64,000 nucleotides of DNA, from positions 3,038,001 through 3,102,000 of the forward strand of contig NC_087074.1 of the NCBI RefSeq assembly GCF_026151205.1. The letters are read 5' to 3'. How positions within the stretch are numbered: the first letter of the stretch is position 1; every line of letters begins with the position of its first letter. The notes below the pieces were generated by a model, which had not been told where the DNA came from, did no database searches, and was given only the letters and a program-made list of their open reading frames with translations. The DNA is from Bolinopsis microptera (lineage: Eukaryota > Ctenophora > Tentaculata > Lobata > Bolinopsidae). This document shows positions 3,981-14,935 of the stretch, piece after piece. Made by a program: the position numbers and the translations under genes.

Positions 3981-5056
3981 CCTTACTCGGGAATATTATA
4001 ACCGGGATAAAGTGGTGGGTTTTGGAAGATTCCGCCATATTTTTCCCGATCAAAAATTTTACCAGTCATAAAAAAACCCGCCGACTCAGATTATGGTGTT
4101 CCAAGGGGGTGGTGATCATCATATTTTACCTGAAGTCTCATATGTGCTAGAGAAGACTTTTGAAGCAGTGGATGGAGGGCTGTAACTTTATTGGCGGTTG
4201 CTACCATAATTTCGTTATAAAAATCACAATTTGGTTATAGAAATCAGATTTCAGGGTGGACCGTGATTCTCACTTCTCTTGCCCATGAATCAGTGAATCG
4301 TAGAGAAGAAAACAATTTATATGTTATAGAAGAAAACGAAAATAATAATAATATATGGACACGTTCATTTGAGTTTGAGGATATTGGTAAACAAAAATAA
4401 TAGCGTTTTTGACGATAGTGGCTTAATTTTGACATCTATTAACCTAGCACGTTCAGAAGTTCTGAACATTAGCCACGTAACCCATACTCCCATATGCACC
4501 GCTCAGAAAGAAAATCTATTGTTGTTAGGCACTATAATGTTTCAAATGTCACATTTTGTGTGACTTAGTTAACTGCAGTTGTCTAATTATCATTCCTTGG
4601 TCTGAAATATAGTAAATTAGGTCAATCTAACAATTATGATACAACATTGGTTAATGGGCACGGATCGAACGGTTACAAGGCAATATTTGGGTAACTTTGT
4701 CACACTCATGATACCATACCTCTATTCGACTATTCTACTGTGAGGTGTCCTAAAAACCCTTTCAACTCATTATTTGATGGTTGCTCTACCAATCATAGCC
4801 CTAAAATATGTTGTTTTGAATAGTTAGCTAATACAGGCACTCGGTTATTGGGAAATGAGGTTAATTCTGTCACAATATATGGAATTTAAAATTTTGGGCG
4901 AATTATTTATATCTGATTTTGGTTTGAAAGGCGGGAAAGTTTTATATGATGACAATGTAGTTGATGCAAGTTAAGATCAGTTGATGTTAACATTGTCACA
5001 AAAAATTATGCGAAATCGTAAATAGATTAAAAACAATGATTATAGAATGAAATAGT

Positions 5057-5248
5057 CTCTTATAATAACTCTTATAATAACTCTTATAATAACTCTTATA
5101 ATAACTCTTATAATAACTCTTATAATAACTCTTATAATAACTCTTATAATAACTCTTATAATAACTCTTATAATAACTCTTATAATAACTCTTATAATAA
5201 CTCTTATAATAACTCTTATAATAACTCTTATAATAACTCTTATAATAA
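5057..5248 (+). repeat. 12-bp satellite (CTCTTATAATAA) x 16
   Basis: Sixteen consecutive units without a mismatch (192 bp). Single units precede the same downstream paragraph near 5516 and 5823, so the array expanded from a pre-existing unit of a larger repeat of about 300 bp. Confidence 0.95.
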
Positions 5249-5880
5249 CTGATGTGACAAAGTAAACATGTCTTGCCCCTATTTTGAAGATCTTTATTCT
5301 ATACCTCTATTAGAATATTGTCCAGAACACCAGAGCTTAAGTTTAACAATTTTAGGTTAAATTTGTCAAAGTCACTAAAAATGTGACAAAATTAACTTTT
5401 CATGCCCCAACAATTTCAAGATAGTGTGTAAAAATTAGCATAGGCTGCTTTATTACCTATATAAATCAATCCAAACTACAAAAAAATATATGTTAATGTG
5501 ATGACGATTACCTAACTCTTATAATAACTGATGTGACAAAGTAAACATGTCTTGCCCCTATTTTGAAGATCTTTAACTCTATTAGAATTCAACATTCTTT
5601 CAGAAACGATTGGAAGAATATTGTCCAGAACATAAGAACTCAATTTTAAAAATTTAGATTTATTTGTCAAAGACATTGAAAATGTGACAAAATTAACTTT
5701 CCCTGCCCCAACAGTATCAAGATAGTGTGTTAAAATTGGCATAGGATTTATTACAGGTATATTAAAGTATTAATTGATCCAAACTACGAAAAATATCTTT
5801 TAATCTGATGACGATTACCTAACTCTTATAATAACTGATGTGACAAAGTAAACATGTATTGCCCCTATTTTGAAGAACTA
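5249..5880 (+). repeat. Tandem paragraphs of about 300 bp in G1
   Basis: The text CTGATGTGACAAAGTAAAC followed by CATGTMTTGCCCCTATTTTG starts at about 5249, 5528 and 5835. Each copy then carries a GTGACAAAATTAAC variant and 'CTTTTAATCTGATGACG'-like text. This is a decayed tandem triplication. Confidence 0.75.
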
Positions 5881-6725
5881 TACCTCTATTAGAATACTAT
5901 GTAACTTTATCATCAAAAAAATGTCGATAAACTAGTTATTTTGCCAGCAAGGAGCTAACTGAGTTATAATAATTTTTTGTGACGAAATTACCCTATTTTT
6001 GACCATGTTGCGGTAGTTTAATTGTGACACTGTTTACATATTACCACCTGATAATGATTTATGTGACTGGTGCATGGTACTAGCAGTGTTGTTTGATCCA
6101 TAGTACGTATAATATAAGGGGTTTAAGCTGGTATATCATTATTTGTTCAATTTCACACATGTTCAGATATCATCAAGATTATGTGACAAAGTAAGCTTGG
6201 TTGTGCCTTCTGTGTTTTAATCCCTTACGACTATATGATATAATAACAATTCCCAGCACTTCCAGGCCATCAAATAAACTTACACTACTCAGCATTGCTT
6301 ATCAGGGTGCCCTAAACATTCATCACATATTTTCTTTAATGTGTGACAGAGTAAACCTGAATGCACCATCTGACGAAAAAAGTCGTCAAATATGTAGGTA
6401 ATGGTCATATGTACCCATCCAATCAACTGGACACTCAAAAATTTGGTCAAAAACGGCAGCAAGGGGTCCATATTTACTCCGTCACATGTTTATAGTGTGA
6501 CAATGTAACCATTTCCGTGCCGGCCGTATTTAAGCGATATCTTATCACTTTATCAGCTGATTAAGATATCGTTATGTGACAAAGTTAGCCTGAAGGATGA
6601 GACGATTATCCTAACCATCAAGGGTTTAAGTAATTTCATAGTGTGACAAAGTCAACTAGACTGTGCCTTTTAATAGGGTCACTTATATTTACCAATATCC
6701 TCAAACTCAAATGAACGTGTCCATA

Positions 6726-7249
6726 TAATAATAATAATTCTATACTGTTACATAATTTAAAAATTATGGCCCCTTATTGTGGGCAGAGTATGTGTCTTTA
6801 TTTAAGTGTCCTGATTTAAAAATCATCTGAGTGACTGCATTGAAATAATTTAAGGAGAGTACCATAAAAACGTTAAAACAAAAGGAGTAACAACTAGAAC
6901 ATACTTATATTAATATCAACATTAGAACAAAATACAGTCACCTAATTCTCTTCTCCTACGGTTGAGTATAGAGGAACCATCTTTGGCGTGTATAAGGGAC
7001 TTAGACCATTACAAATACCCTGCTGTAAGTTTGCAAGGTATGTGGACTAAGTGGGTCGAGAGTACTCGACTTGGAAGTGGGTGTTGAGAATTCTCAACTA
7101 AACTAGAAGATAATGATGTCCAGAAGATGAGGCAGTAGATGGAGTAGTAAAGGAGTAGTAGAGGCTGAAGGGGGAGTGATGTCATAAGGAGATGTAGGAC
7201 ATGAAGGGGGATGGAGGTGAAGGAGCACTAATAAGTATAAGTACCAATT
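6726..7249. other. Right interior of E1, LINE 3' flank, no gene
   Basis: Follows the right end of G1. The part next to the LINE fragment (about 7060-7249) is purine-rich on the plus strand with GGAGTAGTARAGG-like repeats and could be the LINE 3' untranslated region. Nothing else seen. Confidence 0.4.
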
Positions 7250-10140: not shown

Positions 10141-10639
10141 GGCAAGTTTCCATAAACGATATTTTATGATCGGCGCCAATAATCGCTTATTGGGCGCTTT
10201 CTCGGCGCTTTTTTTTAAAAACCGTTTATAATCGATTTTTTTACGATTATAAACGGTTCAAAAAAAATCGCTTATAATCGACTATAATTGATGTCATAAT
10301 TCAAAAAAGCGCTTTTTTAATTTAAAAGCGCTTATAAGCGCTTATAAGCGCTTATGAGCGTCGCTGAGCGATTTGAAAGCGGATTTCCAGTAGGATTGGC
10401 GCCAAAAACCATTTCTAAGCGATTATAAGCGCTTATAATTGGGGTGCAATTTAGCTGTTTCTAAAGCGCAAATAAAGCGCTTATAAGCGCTTTTAAAATT
10501 GAGTCAGGAAAACGCTATATTACATCTTATAACCGCTTATAATCGATTATAAGCGTTTTTTAGAAATCGCTTATTACGGCTAATTCGTCGCTATTTTACC
10601 GCTTTTACCGCTTTTCCTATCATCCATGGCCAGGTGAGC

Positions 10640-11790
10640 AGGAATTAAAAAGCGCTTAGAAGCACTTTTTCGATGCTGCCCCTAACCTGGTCGGAACGGG
10701 GTCGGTAGTGCCCGGAATTTAAAAGCACTTATAAGCGATTTCTCAATTCCCCTTAACCTGGTCGGAACTTGCATGTGCTTTTCTGAGCAACCTGGGGTGC
10801 ACCAGCAGAGTCAGGATTTAAAAGCGCTTATAGGCGCTTATGATCGCTTTTCTACCACTTTTCCTATCACCCATGGCATGGGTTGGCAAGAATTATAAAG
10901 CGCTTATAAGCGTTTTTTCAATGCTGCCCCTTACCTGGTCGGAACGGGGGAGTGCCCGGAATTATAAAGCGCTTATAAGCGATTTCTCAATTCCCCTTAA
11001 CCTGGTCGGAACTGGAGAGTGCCCACTTGCATGTGCTTTTCTGAGCAACCTGGGGTGCACCGGCAGAGTCAGGATTTAAAAGCGCTTATAGGCGCTTATG
11101 ATCGCTTTTCTACCGCTTTTTCTATCACCGCATGGCCTGGTTGGCAAGAATTATAAAGCGCTTATAAGCGTTTTTCAATGCTGCCCCTAACCTGTTCGGA
11201 ACGGGGGTGTGCCCGGAATTAAAAAGCGCTTATAAACGATTTCTCAATTCCCTTCAACCTGGTCGGAACTGGAAAGTGCCCACTTGCAAGTGCTTTTCTG
11301 TGCAACTTGGGGTGCACCGGCAGGGTCAGGATTTAAAAACGCTTATAGGCGCTTATGATTGCTTTTCTACCGCTTTTCCCATCACCCATGGCCTGGTTGG
11401 CAAGAATTATAAAGCGCTTATAAGCGTTTTTTCAATGCTGCCACTAACCTGGTCGCAACGGGGGAGTGCCCGGAATTAAAAGGCGCTTATAAGCACTTTT
11501 TCAATGCTGCCCCTAACCTGGTCGGAACGGGGGAGTGCCCGGAATTAAAAGCGCTTATAAGCGATTTCTCAATTCCCTTCAACCTGGTCGAAACTGGAGA
11601 GTGCCCAGTCGTATGTGCTTTTCTGAGCAACCTGGGGTGCACCGGCAGAGTCAGGATTTAAAAGCGCTTATAGGCGCTTATGATCGCTTATCTACCGCTT
11701 TTCCCATCACCCATGGGATGGTTGGCAGGAATTAGAAAGCGCTTATAAGCGCTTTTTTAATGCTGCCCCTAAGGATTTGAAAAGCGGTTA
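10640..11790 (+). repeat. Left-arm tandem repeats of E2, about 257-bp unit
   Basis: The phrase AATGCTGCCCCTAACCTGGT recurs at about 10671, 10919, 11176, 11433, 11500 and 11757, giving a period near 257 bp with one short partial unit. Each unit holds three or four GCGCTTATAAGCGC-type palindromes. The ORFs in this stretch share repeat-derived words such as 'NSLQPGRNW' and are not genes. Confidence 0.9.
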
Positions 11791-11799
11791 TAAGCGATT

Positions 11800-12625
11800 A
11801 CAATCACTTTTTATTGCTGGTTTTCCTTAAAATTTGGGCGAGCGATTTAGTAGAAGCGGTCCAACTCGGCGCGCGCCCTGGTACAGTAGGTTGTAAACCT
11901 ACAATTGCGAGAAGCATTATTGGATGCGCGGCGCGGCCCAGCTAGTGCGTTGCGCTACAGTACACGAAGGTCAAGAAATAAAATTTGAGGACTTAATTCA
12001 TAATTCGACGCGCCGCGCAAACTTGCATTCTTGCTTCGCTTTGCTTCGCAGAGCAACGATTTGAAAGAAACATAAGCAATTAATTAGGCCAAAAGTAAAT
12101 CACCAGGGGACCCCATCCGGCCCAGTGCAGGTTACTGGGCCGCGCTCAGCCTGTCATTCCGCCTAATTACCAACATTAAAGCCTGGGGTCCTCAGGTAAA
12201 GTGCAGGCTGTGTATTATTAATTATGTTCATAAATAGTAAATAAATAATTATATGGAATATAGATTCGGGAGATTGATAGTCTAAGCGCCGCCTAGCGGC
12301 CTAGTAAGAAGCAAATATGAAATAGTTTAAAAATAGTGAGTACAAAATAGCGCGCTATTCCGGGTCAGTCCATTATATTTATAAACTGTATTTTTTTTTG
12401 GAAAATATATATATAACAATATAATTTACAACATAACAATGTATATTGACCAGATTTACCAAATTTATAAACTGTAATGGACAATATTGAGAAAAGCCTT
12501 AATCATTAATACGATTTTTAAAATTTCTAACTCCTTTATAAATCGACGTGTCATATTGAGGCCCAGATATTGAAAAAATCATTAGTAAAAACTAGCAGTG
12601 TCATATTTTTAATTTATCTATGAAA
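11800..12625. other. Loop (centre) of E2
   Basis: The single-copy spacer between the arms. It contains a GC-rich dispersed unit at about 11855-11960 (shared with 34470-34680, 46500-46545 and 47635-47755), a 68-bp mobile unit at 12132-12199, and AT-rich sequence. No ORF of note, so the loop does not encode a transposase. Confidence 0.6.
12124..12207 (-). mobile_element. Miniature element M, copy 1 (68 bp) with 8-bp duplication
   Basis: The element 12132-12199 starts TTACTGGGCCGCGCTCAGCC and ends CTCAGGTAA, flanked by AGTGCAGG on both sides (12124-12131 and 12200-12207). It is the reverse orientation of the copies at 31215 and 34507. Ends are TTAC...GTAA. Too short to code; it must be moved by something supplied elsewhere. 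Confidence 0.8.
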
Positions 12626-12639
12626 GGCCAAGGTAGAAA

Positions 12640-14520
12640 AGCGATCATAAGCGCGTATAAGCGCTTTTAAATCGTGAATCTGCCGGTGCACCCCAGGTTG
12701 CTCAGAAAAACACTTATAAGTGGGCACTCTCCAGTTCCGACCAGGTTAAGGGCAGCTGCAGCATTGAAAAAGCGCGCTTATAAGCGCTTTCTAATTCCTG
12801 CCAACCAGGCCAAGGGTAATAGGAAAAGCGGTAGAAAAGCGATCATAAGCGCCTATAAGCGCTTTTAAATCCTGATTCTGTCGGTGTCCCCAGGTTGCAC
12901 TTGCACAGAAAAGCACTTATAACTATAAGCGGGCACACTGATTTCCAGTTAAGGGGAATTGAGAAATCGCTTATAAGCGCAGCTAATGAGCGCTTTTCAA
13001 TTCCGGGCACTCCCCCGTTCCGACCAGGTTAGTGGCAGCATTGAAAAAGCGATTATAAGCGCTTTCTAATTCTTGCCAACCAGGCCATGGGTGATAGGAA
13101 AAGCGGTAGAAAAGCAATCATAAGCGCCTATAAGCGCTTTTAAATCCTGACTCTGCCGGTGCAACCCAGGTTGCTCAGAAAAGCACATGCAAGTGGGCAC
13201 TCTCCAGTTCCGACCAGGTTAAGGGGAATTGAGAAATCGCTTATAAGCGCTTTTTAACTCCGGGCACTCCCCCGTTCCGACCAGGTAAGGGGCAGCATTG
13301 AAAAAACGCTTATAAGCGCTTTATAATTCTTGCCAACCCATGCCATGGGTGATGGGAAAAGCGGTAGAAAAGCAATCATAAGCGCCTATAAGCGTTTTTA
13401 AATCCTGACTCTGCCGGTGCACCCCAGGTTGCTCAGAAAAGCACTTGCAATGTGCAAGTGGGCACTCTCCAGTTCCGACCAGGTTGAAGGGAATTGAGAA
13501 ATCGTTTATAAGCGCTTTTTAATTCTTGCCAACCACTGGTTGGCCTGGTTGAACCAGGCCATGGGTGATAGGAAAAGCGGTAGAAAAGCAATCATAAGCG
13601 CCTATAAGCGCTTTTAAATCCTGACTCTGCCGGTGCAACCCAGGTTGCTCAGAAAAGCACATGCAAGTGGGCACTCTCCAGTTCCGACCAGGTTAAGGGG
13701 AATTGAGAAATCGCTTATAAGCGCTTTTTAACTCCGGGCACTCCCCCGTTCCGACCAGGTAAGGGGCAGCATTGAAAAAACGCTTATAAGCGCTTTATAA
13801 TTCTTGCCAACCCATGCCATGGGTGATGGGAAAAGCGGTAGAAAAGCAATCATAAGCGCCTATAAGCGTTTTTAAATCCTGACTCTGCCGGTGCACCCCA
13901 GGTTGCTCAGAAAAGCACTTGCAAGTGGGCACTCTCCAGTTCCGACCAGGTTGAAGGGAATTGAGAAATCGTTTATAAGCGCTTTTTAATTCTTGCCAAC
14001 CAGGCCATGGGTGATAGGAAAAGCGGTAGAAAAGCAATCATAAGCGCCTATAAGCGCTTTTAAATCCTGACTCTGCCGGTGCAACCCAGGTTGCTCAGAA
14101 AAGCACATGCAAGTGGGCACTCTCCAGTTCCGACCAGGTTAAGGGGAATTGAGAAATCGCTTATAAGCGCTTTTTAACTCCGGGCACTCCCCCGTTCCGA
14201 CCAGGTAAGGGGCAGCATTGAAAAAACGCTTATAAGCGCTTTATAATTCTTGCCAACCCATGCCATGGGTGATAGGAAAAGTGGTAGAAAAGCGATCATA
14301 AGCGCCTATAAGCGCTTTTAAATCCTGACTCTGCCGGTGCACCCCAGGTTGCTCAGAAAAGCACATGCAAGTTCCGACCAGGTTAAGGGGAATTGAGAAA
14401 TCCCTTATAAGCGCTTTTAAATTCCGGGCACTACCCCGTTCCGACCAGGTTAGGGGCAGCATCGAAAAAGCGTTTATAAGCGCTTTTTAATTCCTGCTCA
14501 CCTGGCCATGGATGATAGGA
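12640..14520 (-). repeat. Right-arm tandem repeats of E2 with a higher-order period
   Basis: The reverse complement of the left-arm units. Within the arm, blocks starting at about 13161, 13639 and 14079 are near-identical over several hundred bases, giving a higher-order period of about 440-480 bp that the left arm lacks. The two arms therefore amplified separately after the palindrome formed. Confidence 0.85.
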
Positions 14521-14935
14521 AAAGCGGTAAAAGCGGTAAAATAGCGATGAATTAGCCGTAATAAGCGATTTCTAAAAAACCGCTTATAATCGATTATAAG
14601 CGGTTATAAGATGTAATATAGCGTTTTTCTGACTCAATTTTAAAAGCGCTTATAAGCGCTTTATTTGCGCTTTACAAACAGCTAAATTGCACCCCAATTA
14701 TAAGCGCTTATAATCGCTTAGAAATGGTTCAAAAAAGCGCCTACGAATCGCTTATCCGACCAACCGCTTATCCACCCGTTTTTGGCGCCAATCCTACTGG
14801 AAAACCGCTTTCAAATCGCTCAGCGACGCTCATAAGCGCTTATAAGCGCTTATAAGCGCTTTTAAATTTAAAAAAAGCGCTTTTTTGAATTATGACATCA
14901 ATTATAGTCGATTATAAGCGATTTTTTTTGAACCG

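What the first reader, a model, noticed from the sequence alone, without database searches (positions are those of the whole stretch)
4356..6723. Element G1 carries about 15 copies of GTGACAAAGTWAAC that switch strand
A 14-base core recurs at 45-160-bp spacing while the sequence between has drifted. Three copies at the left are reversed and twelve at the right are forward. Multiple phased sites between perfect 36-bp inverted ends suggest binding sites for a transposase or host factor, a pattern I do not know from a described family.
Basis: partly seen in the sequence, partly recalled or inferred. Interest (0 to 1): 0.75.

Follow-up and report, generated by a model that had tools for sequence, protein, structure and literature searches.

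The report
Transposon packed with outward-facing binding sites
The window holds one of about 500 copies of a gene-less jumping DNA element whose whole length is dotted with a short, apparently selected sequence pointing mostly toward the nearer end, most likely the docking site of the still unidentified protein that moves it.

Summary
The element is window 4357-6722 (2366 bp, 35-bp perfect terminal inverted repeats, 4-bp ATAT target duplication). It carries 18 motif matches at up to 3 mismatches, 13 forward and 5 reverse; shuffles of its interior give 0.7. About 500 copies exist (494+500 end matches, reversed control 0/0). All 31 complete copies examined hold 13-17 sites with the same polarity: left sites mostly point left, right sites right, one recurrent exception per side. 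In 14 older related loci the core GTGAC is 96% conserved against 82% for spacers (452/470 vs 7708/9393; 0 of 1736 shifts); the four loci fetched after the core was named give 97% vs 82%. The rest of the 14-mer is no better kept than spacers, so the unit is GTGAC with a degenerate tail.

Best reading: a non-autonomous cut-and-paste transposon whose array binds its transposase or a helper protein, as in CACTA or Ac/Ds subterminal repeats. No partner element was found. The AT-rich 4-bp duplication fits Sola2; membership is unproven. New variant of a known kind: sites span the whole element, many about 150 bp apart.

The parts
4357..6722 (.). Element G1, non-autonomous DNA transposon, 2366 bp
   Evidence: inverted repeat pair; DNA search of the genome scored 40 of 1051 candidates and gave 149 matches; longest open frame in this copy 100 codons; length
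4353..4356 (.). Target site duplication, left (ATAT)
   Evidence: 38 of 38 loci with both ends have identical 4-mers on both sides, 26 of them ATAT (47 loci given)
6723..6726 (.). Target site duplication, right (ATAT)
4357..4391 (+). Left terminal inverted repeat, 35 bp, perfect
6688..6722 (-). Right terminal inverted repeat, 35 bp, perfect
4560..4573 (+). Site, 2 mismatches; next to a reversed TGTCACA at 4547; the one left site that points right
   Evidence: same type of site in relatives L074, L080, L081, L082
4690..4703 (-). Site, left half, points to left end
4860..4873 (-). Site, left half, points to left end
4986..4999 (-). Site, left half, points to left end
5057..5250 (+). 12-bp tandem array CTCTTATAATAA, 16.2 copies, at the point where site polarity switches; most of it missing in most of the 40 scored copies
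5254..5267 (+). Site, perfect match, start of right half, in repeated ~300-bp unit
5356..5369 (-). Weak reversed site (TTGAC core, 2 mismatches), head-to-head with 5383; a reversed site with the same letters was counted 28 times over the 31 complete copies
5383..5396 (+). Site, right half, in repeated ~300-bp unit
5533..5546 (+). Site, perfect match, in repeated ~300-bp unit
5684..5697 (+). Site, in repeated ~300-bp unit
5840..5853 (+). Site, perfect match, in repeated ~300-bp unit
5979..5992 (+). Site (3 mismatches here; closer to consensus in relatives)
6024..6037 (+). Site (3 mismatches here; closer to consensus in relatives)
6183..6196 (+). Site, right half
6343..6356 (+). Site, right half
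6472..6485 (-). Weak reversed site (3 mismatches), head-to-head with 6497
6497..6510 (+). Site, right half
6576..6589 (+). Site, right half
6643..6656 (+). Site nearest the right end (its last base lies 66 bp from the end)

Best explanation
G1 is a non-autonomous cut-and-paste DNA transposon. SHOWN: 35-bp perfect inverted ends, a 4-bp AT-rich target duplication, about 500 copies, and no transposase found in the copies examined. Also SHOWN: 13-17 sites per complete copy with the core GTGAC and a degenerate tail, mostly pointing outward from the middle toward each end, the core kept while the spacers drifted. INFERRED: the sites are bound by a DNA-binding domain of the mobilising transposase, or of a helper protein coded by the autonomous partner (a TNPA-like role). 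Several molecules load on each half in one polarity and bring the two ends together for excision and insertion at TATATA-like targets. The unequal numbers (in the window copy 4 sites left; 12 forward plus 2 weak reversed sites right) may mark the two ends as different. The gain of sites by a ~300-bp tandem unit would fit selection for avidity. The partner element was not found.
For: Enrichment: 15 sites vs mean 0.07 in 1000 shuffles. Copy number and ends: 494+500 end matches, control 0/0. The 15-mer TGTGACAAAGTWAAC occurs 413+550 times exactly, control 0/0. Of the 100 places listed, all on C1, 92 lie within 3.4 kb of an exact G1 end; the other 8 (5 loci) were fetched and all proved G1-related. 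Selection: GTGAC identical to G1 in 307/321 cells of ten related loci vs 5070/6192 in spacers, 0 of 1736 circular shifts as extreme; the four loci fetched later 145/149 vs 2638/3201, 1 of 1736. Core identity is close to that of the ends where both are present (L074 68/72, L079 71/72, L080 68/72). Flanks of sites share little (mean z 0.29 and -0.15 over 45 pairs each; 3 of 45 downstream and 0 of 45 upstream pairs above z 3), so the motif is not simply a leftover of recent long repeats. Polarity in 31 complete copies: left of the switch 93 reverse and 29 forward, right 337 forward and 28 reverse. Target duplication 38 of 38. Described precedents.
Against: No transposase or partner element was found, so binding by a transposase is inference. 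The full 14-mer is only slightly more conserved (88 of 2088 shifts; with a wider exclusion zone 124 of 1880 in the first ten, 19 of 1880 in the later four, 44 of 1880 in all fourteen), and positions 6-14 not at all (0.806 vs 0.817). The downstream TGCC seen in G1 is not more conserved (643 of 1720 shifts), and the leading T only weakly (164 of 1672). The core was named after seeing the per-position table; only the later four loci are a fresh test, and one of them (L082) is, by its coordinates, the other half of the element in L078. The 16-site set used left out the two weak reversed sites (5356, whose core is TTGAC, and 6472). Among 40 young copies the private-versus-shared test is not significant (core 9 private, 0 shared; spacer 324 private, 54 shared; Fisher p 0.62). 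The relatives share history and cells are not independent events. One left site and one or two right sites break the polarity.
Confidence: 0.65

Rival explanations
1. The sites bind a host protein (transcription factor, replication or chromatin factor) that the element recruits, for example for expression, replication timing or as an insulator, and not the transposition machinery.
For: The core is short and could be a host site; 8 of 11 right-half gaps are 129-160 bp, near nucleosome length. No element-coded binder is known.
Against: Every one of the 100 listed exact 15-mer places is in or near a G1-type element, so no host-wide use was seen, though 863 of 963 places were not listed. Nearly fixed polarity relative to the transposon ends is more natural for end recognition. 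An element without a gene has little need of a promoter array.
Confidence: 0.18
2. The sites are relics of an old ~150/300-bp tandem repeat with no function, kept alike by homogenisation between units.
For: A ~300-bp unit with two sites is truly duplicated and varies in number (L057 has 21 forward sites in a 3.85-kb copy). Three of 45 downstream flank pairs have some similarity (z 3.2, 3.2, 4.4).
Against: Most flank pairs share nothing beyond the motif; homogenisation would keep long stretches alike, not five or six bases. The core is kept at the same positions in elements ~20% diverged, including left-half sites that lie outside the 300-bp repeat.
Confidence: 0.1
3. The sites serve silencing or element regulation (repressor binding) and not transposition itself.
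For: In Spm/En the protein that binds subterminal repeats also suppresses and regulates the element (PMC2613891 passages), so the two roles can overlap.
Against: No gene to regulate was found in G1 (longest open frame in the window copy 100 codons); repression alone would not select for site retention in a non-autonomous element.
Confidence: 0.06

Closest known systems
CACTA (En/Spm, Tgmt*) subterminal repeats bound by TNPA-like proteins
   Same: Many short sites with an invariant part and a variable part. Unequal numbers at the two ends (Tgmt*: 4 left within 159 bp, 24 right within 732 bp; invariant TTGGCAG plus divergent AATCTTACAG). Described as cis-determinants of transposition (PMC2613891 passages).
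   Different: G1 has GGAC ends (no CACTA), a 4-bp duplication, no detected gene, sites across its whole length with many gaps near 150 bp, and mostly one polarity per half.
Ac/Ds (hAT) AAACGG subterminal hexamers
   Same: Hexamer-scale core repeated at both ends, bound cooperatively by the transposase; shared by non-autonomous copies with little else in common (PMC3260210 passages).
   Different: hAT duplications are 5-8 bp (PMC4482050 passage); in Ac the needed ends are the terminal 200 bp; G1 motif and ends differ.
Galileo (P superfamily) THAP sites in long repetitive TIRs
   Same: Several binding sites, the first about 70 bp from the end, two more inside internal repeats; avidity proposed as the source of specificity (PMC3688188 passages). 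The rightmost G1 site ends 66 bp from the end.
   Different: Three sites found in Galileo-G; its inverted repeat is 1.2 kb long; P-type duplications are 8 bp (recalled).
Sola2 DNA transposons
   Same: 4-bp AT-rich target duplications (ATAT, AAAT, ATTT; AWWT) and short inverted ends (PMC3627910 passages); G1 has ATAT 26, TTAT 4, AAAT 2, ACAT 2 and four others among 38.

Membership tests
Cut-and-paste TIR DNA transposon (class II), non-autonomous | Terminal inverted repeats, fixed-length target duplication, dispersed copies, no transposase | tested here: met
   38 of 38 loci with both ends have identical 4-mers; 494+500 ends; in 31 complete copies the longest open frame is 196 codons (in a 3.0-kb copy), median 68; of ten longer end pairs (3.6-12.5 kb) eight hold nested insertions and two are unit expansions. 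Most of the ~500 copies were not read
Sola2 | 4-bp AT-rich target duplication | tested here: met
   against PMC3627910 passages
Sola2 | Sola2 transposase in the autonomous member | not testable with these tools
   no autonomous partner found; I know of no Sola2 profile in the libraries at hand (recalled, not searched)
CACTA/Chapaev (CMC) | Ends 5'-CAC...GTG-3' | tested here: not met
   ends are GGACAC...GTGTCC; hallmark for Chapaev from PMC4079192 passage
CACTA/Chapaev (CMC) | 2-4 bp target duplication | tested here: met
   4 bp; range from PMC4482050 passage
hAT | 5-8 bp target duplication | tested here: not met
   4 bp; identical 5-mers in 0 of 38; identical 6-mers in 4 of 38, which I put down to AT runs
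P / Galileo | 8-bp duplication (recalled) | tested here: not met
   4 bp
piggyBac / Kolobok / Sola3 | TTAA duplication (recalled); piggyBac ends CC...GG | tested here: not met
   0 of 38 are TTAA; ends GG...CC
PHIS (Harbinger, ISL2EU, Spy, Pangu, Nuwa) | Group-specific duplication: ANT, CWG, TNA, TWA, AT or none (recalled); another paper gives none or 1-4 bp for the whole group (PMC10045372 passage) | tested here: inconclusive
   4-bp duplication, mostly ATAT: fits none of the named groups, but 4 bp is within the range
MuDR (MULE) | Target duplication; 4-10 bp given for MuDR together with IS256 (PMC10045372 passage) | tested here: inconclusive
   4 bp is at the edge of that range; no transposase to compare
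Ginger1 / IS481EU | TGT...ACA ends (IS481EU; Ginger1 recalled) | tested here: not met
   GGAC...GTCC ends
Transposon with a functional subterminal binding-site array | Repeated short core in both halves, conserved above spacers | tested here: met
Transposon with a functional subterminal binding-site array | Protein binding to the core | not testable with these tools
   needs a protein and a binding assay

The most novel reading that the evidence does not exclude
G1 is the non-autonomous arm of an undescribed animal transposon group (GGAC ends, 4-bp TATATA-centred insertion) that recognises its DNA by a whole-element, outward-polarised array of GTGAC sites at nucleosome-scale spacing. The synaptic complex would then be a long protein-DNA filament over both halves and not an end-bound complex.
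Probability: 0.15. Interest if true: 0.6.

Novelty: new variant of a known kind. Interest (0 to 1): 0.36.

Why it matters
It is a natural case in which selection on internal sites of a gene-less transposon can be read from sequence alone: the core stays, the tail and spacers drift. It predicts the footprint of an unknown transposase or helper and gives a handle (GTGAC array, GGAC ends, TATATA target) for finding the partner. The whole-length array with wide spacing raises a testable question: do transposition proteins act along an entire element and not only near its ends.

Tried and rejected
Search for an autonomous partner. Ten long end pairs were fetched: two of ~12.3-12.5 kb, then 8.0, 5.6, 5.0, 4.5, 4.3, 4.0, 3.8 and 3.6 kb. 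The 12-kb pairs and the 5.6, 5.0, 4.3 and 4.0-kb pairs carry reverse-transcriptase-like ORFs (my reading of the translations, no profile search), the 8.0-kb pair a TTAA-flanked insert, the 4.5-kb pair another insert; the 3.8- and 3.6-kb pairs are expansions of the 300-bp unit. Listings show only about 100 places, so most of the ~500 copies were not read. Exclusion patterns for ends with a different interior gave few places: 1, 2, 14 with control 3 and 0, 5; their sensitivity is limited. Six of these places were fetched with about 4.5 kb each and none shows a transposase element: L065 is a 98-bp derivative of the two ends, L067 has a fragment ~76% similar to G1, the rest look like chance matches or remnants. 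One place is a 423-bp short relative. Extra DNA in relatives L072, L073 and L078 shows no mutual similarity and is taken as insertion. One further genome search was left unused.

Motif details dropped. The downstream CC at positions 24-25 (10 of 13 sites in G1) is not conserved in relatives. The whole 14-mer as the unit is not supported; GTGAC plus the T at position 10 is. The young-copy private/shared test was not significant. A first Fisher value for L074 (0.005) used a miscount of 9 right sites; with the correct 8 it is 0.007.

Papers: full-text search for the motif letters gave 90 papers; the ten listed have titles unrelated to transposons (listing only). Searches on 4-bp duplications and site arrays (listings) gave no title that describes this family; Repbase was not available.

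A mistake of mine: the pattern did not exclude G1 as planned, so it only counts ends preceded by T (214+216).

Full report
What was checked. The window is G000:C3:3038001-3102000 of a 264.65-Mb assembly in 232 contigs; that it is an animal genome is my inference from the reading frames (GPCR- and ankyrin-like). The motif GTGACAAAGTWAAC has 18 matches at up to 3 mismatches in 4356-6723 (13 forward, 5 reverse) and 21 in the other 61.6 kb. Against 1000 dinucleotide shuffles of the element interior, 15 matches at up to 2 mismatches compare with a mean of 0.07. With the 12-bp array and part of the repeated ~300-bp stretch removed it is 13 against 0.06.

What the element is. Ends were fixed with the copies: the inverted repeat starts GGACACGTTCATTTGAGTTTGAGG and is 35 bp without mismatch in the window copy. 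In 38 of 38 loci with both ends (47 loci given) the 4 bases outside each end are identical: ATAT 26, TTAT 4, AAAT 2, ACAT 2, and ACAA, ATAC, TTGT and ACTA one each. The base before is T in 31 and the base after is A in 35 of 38, so the target reads T-ATAT-A. A 34-base end pattern has 494 forward and 500 reverse matches at up to 3 mismatches, with none for the reversed control, so there are about 500 copies. The DNA search scored 40 of 1051 candidates; the longer matches are 93-99% identical, and 23 of 38 paired loci are 2.15-2.23 kb long. The window copy is longer because of its 12-bp array. In 31 complete copies the longest open frame is 196 codons (in a 3.0-kb copy), median 68. Of ten longer end pairs, eight carry nested insertions and two are expanded arrays. 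G1 is therefore taken as a non-autonomous TIR transposon.

The array. In 31 complete copies (of 40 used; the other 9 lack a recognised end in the fetched stretch) there are 13-17 sites each at up to 2 mismatches, median 12 forward and 4 reverse. Left of the polarity switch: 93 reverse and 29 forward; right of it: 337 forward and 28 reverse. The left exception is the site at 4560 (29 such forward sites in all). Of the 29 reversed sites beyond position 700, 28 are TTGACAAATTTAAC, the letters of the one at 5356. Both exceptions lie next to a site of the other orientation; 6472 is a further reversed match at 3 mismatches, head-to-head with 6497. Reading the motif 5' to 3', most sites point to the nearer end. 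The orientation split is p = 0.044 for the window copy (3 reverse and 1 forward left, 2 and 12 right; Fisher) and 0.007 for the older element L074 (4 and 1 left, 0 and 8 right; Fisher). Right-half gaps are 129, 150, 151, 156, 139, 45, 159, 160, 154, 79 and 67 bp; left gaps 170 and 126. A ~300-bp unit with two sites is duplicated and expands in some copies (21 forward sites in L057). Outside the motif, flanks of 10 sites share little: mean z 0.29 downstream and -0.15 upstream over 45 pairs each, with 3 downstream pairs above z 3 (4690/4860, 4690/5979, 5979/6497).

Selection test. G1-like elements about 20% diverged were found by similarity, by ends (L060, L067) or, in one case (L071), by an exact motif. 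In the first ten loci, the 14-mer as a whole at 16 sites was only slightly better kept than spacers (780/908 vs 5716/7000, 88 of 2088 circular shifts). The per-position table of that call pointed to GTGAC, which is also invariant among the 13 non-duplicated sites of the set (a set picked by the pattern, with the weak reversed sites 5356 and 6472 left out). GTGAC was 307/321 (0 of 1944 shifts) and positions 6-14 were 473/587, no better than spacers. The core claim was then tested on four loci fetched afterwards: 145/149 against 2638/3201, 1 of 1736 shifts. One of the four, L082, is by its coordinates the left half of the element whose right half is L078, so fourteen loci are thirteen elements. 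All fourteen together (L067 has no aligned site): 452/470 against 7708/9393, 0 of 1736. G and C are the least conserved letters in spacers (0.752 and 0.773), so composition works against this result. At 6024, 6183 and 6497 most relatives that align carry the consensus letter where G1 deviates. The motif-found locus L071 has the lowest core score (33/38), so ascertainment by motif does not drive the result. Limits: the relatives share history, cells are not independent, the leading T and the downstream TGCC are not clearly above spacers, and the young-copy test is not significant.

Mechanism. Shown: a mobile element with preserved ends and a preserved, polarised internal array. Inferred: the array is the binding platform of the protein that moves it. 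The nearest described cases are CACTA (TNPA and relatives; Tgmt* has 4 repeats left and 24 right, an invariant 7-mer and a divergent 10-mer; PMC2613891, passages read), Ac/Ds (cooperative binding to AAACGG; PMC3260210, passages) and Galileo (THAP sites from 70 bp inward in repetitive inverted ends; PMC3688188, passages). G1 works like these. By ends or duplication it does not meet CMC, hAT, P, piggyBac/Kolobok or Ginger/IS481EU; PHIS and MuDR are not excluded by duplication length (PMC10045372, passage). Sola2 is the best fit by duplication (PMC3627910, passages), unproven.

The motif in the genome. TGTGACAAAGTWAAC occurs 413+550 times without mismatch, reversed control 0/0. Of the 100 listed places, all on C1, 92 lie within 3.4 kb of an exact G1 end. 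The other 8 fall in 5 loci that were fetched, and all proved G1-related: L061 and L062 a diverged G1 pair, L069 and L070 G1 copies, L071 an older relative. I saw no sign of use elsewhere in the host, though 863 of the 963 places were not listed.

Verdict. Interest is moderate: the principle is known, but the whole-element, outward-polarised, widely spaced array and the unassigned end/duplication type are unusual. On rechecking, confidence in the best explanation was lowered from 0.66 to 0.65 because one held-out locus is half of an element already used and because 3 of 45 flank pairs show some similarity.

Noticed in passing
window 10322-14865: Large repeat arrays (257-bp and 474-bp periods and others) with TTATAAGCGC-type units and GGGCACTC..CAGTTCCGACCAGG stretches, bracketed by 10-bp repeats of that unit; looks like another big inverted-repeat element.
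   Followed up: no
L052 2128-7917 (G000:C1): 5.8-kb insert in a G1 copy with TTAA at both junctions and GGGGGCA...TGCCCCC ends; one ORF has a weak, below-cutoff match to a 3'-5' exoribonuclease family (Rv2179c-like, E 0.05).
   Followed up: partly
G000:C1:12307988-12315280: Run of G1 ends at about 2.39-kb steps (+,+,+,-), as if G1 copies sit head to tail sharing ends.
   Followed up: no
L065 74-171: A 98-bp derivative that consists of little more than the two G1 inverted repeats.
   Followed up: no
L051 1170-5129 and L078: Long ORFs that look like Penelope-type reverse transcriptase with a GIY-YIG-like part (my reading of the translations, no profile search), inserted in G1-related copies.
   Followed up: no
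window 5057-5250: The 12-bp CTCTTATAATAA array lies where site polarity switches; much of it is missing in most of the 40 scored G1 copies.
   Followed up: partly
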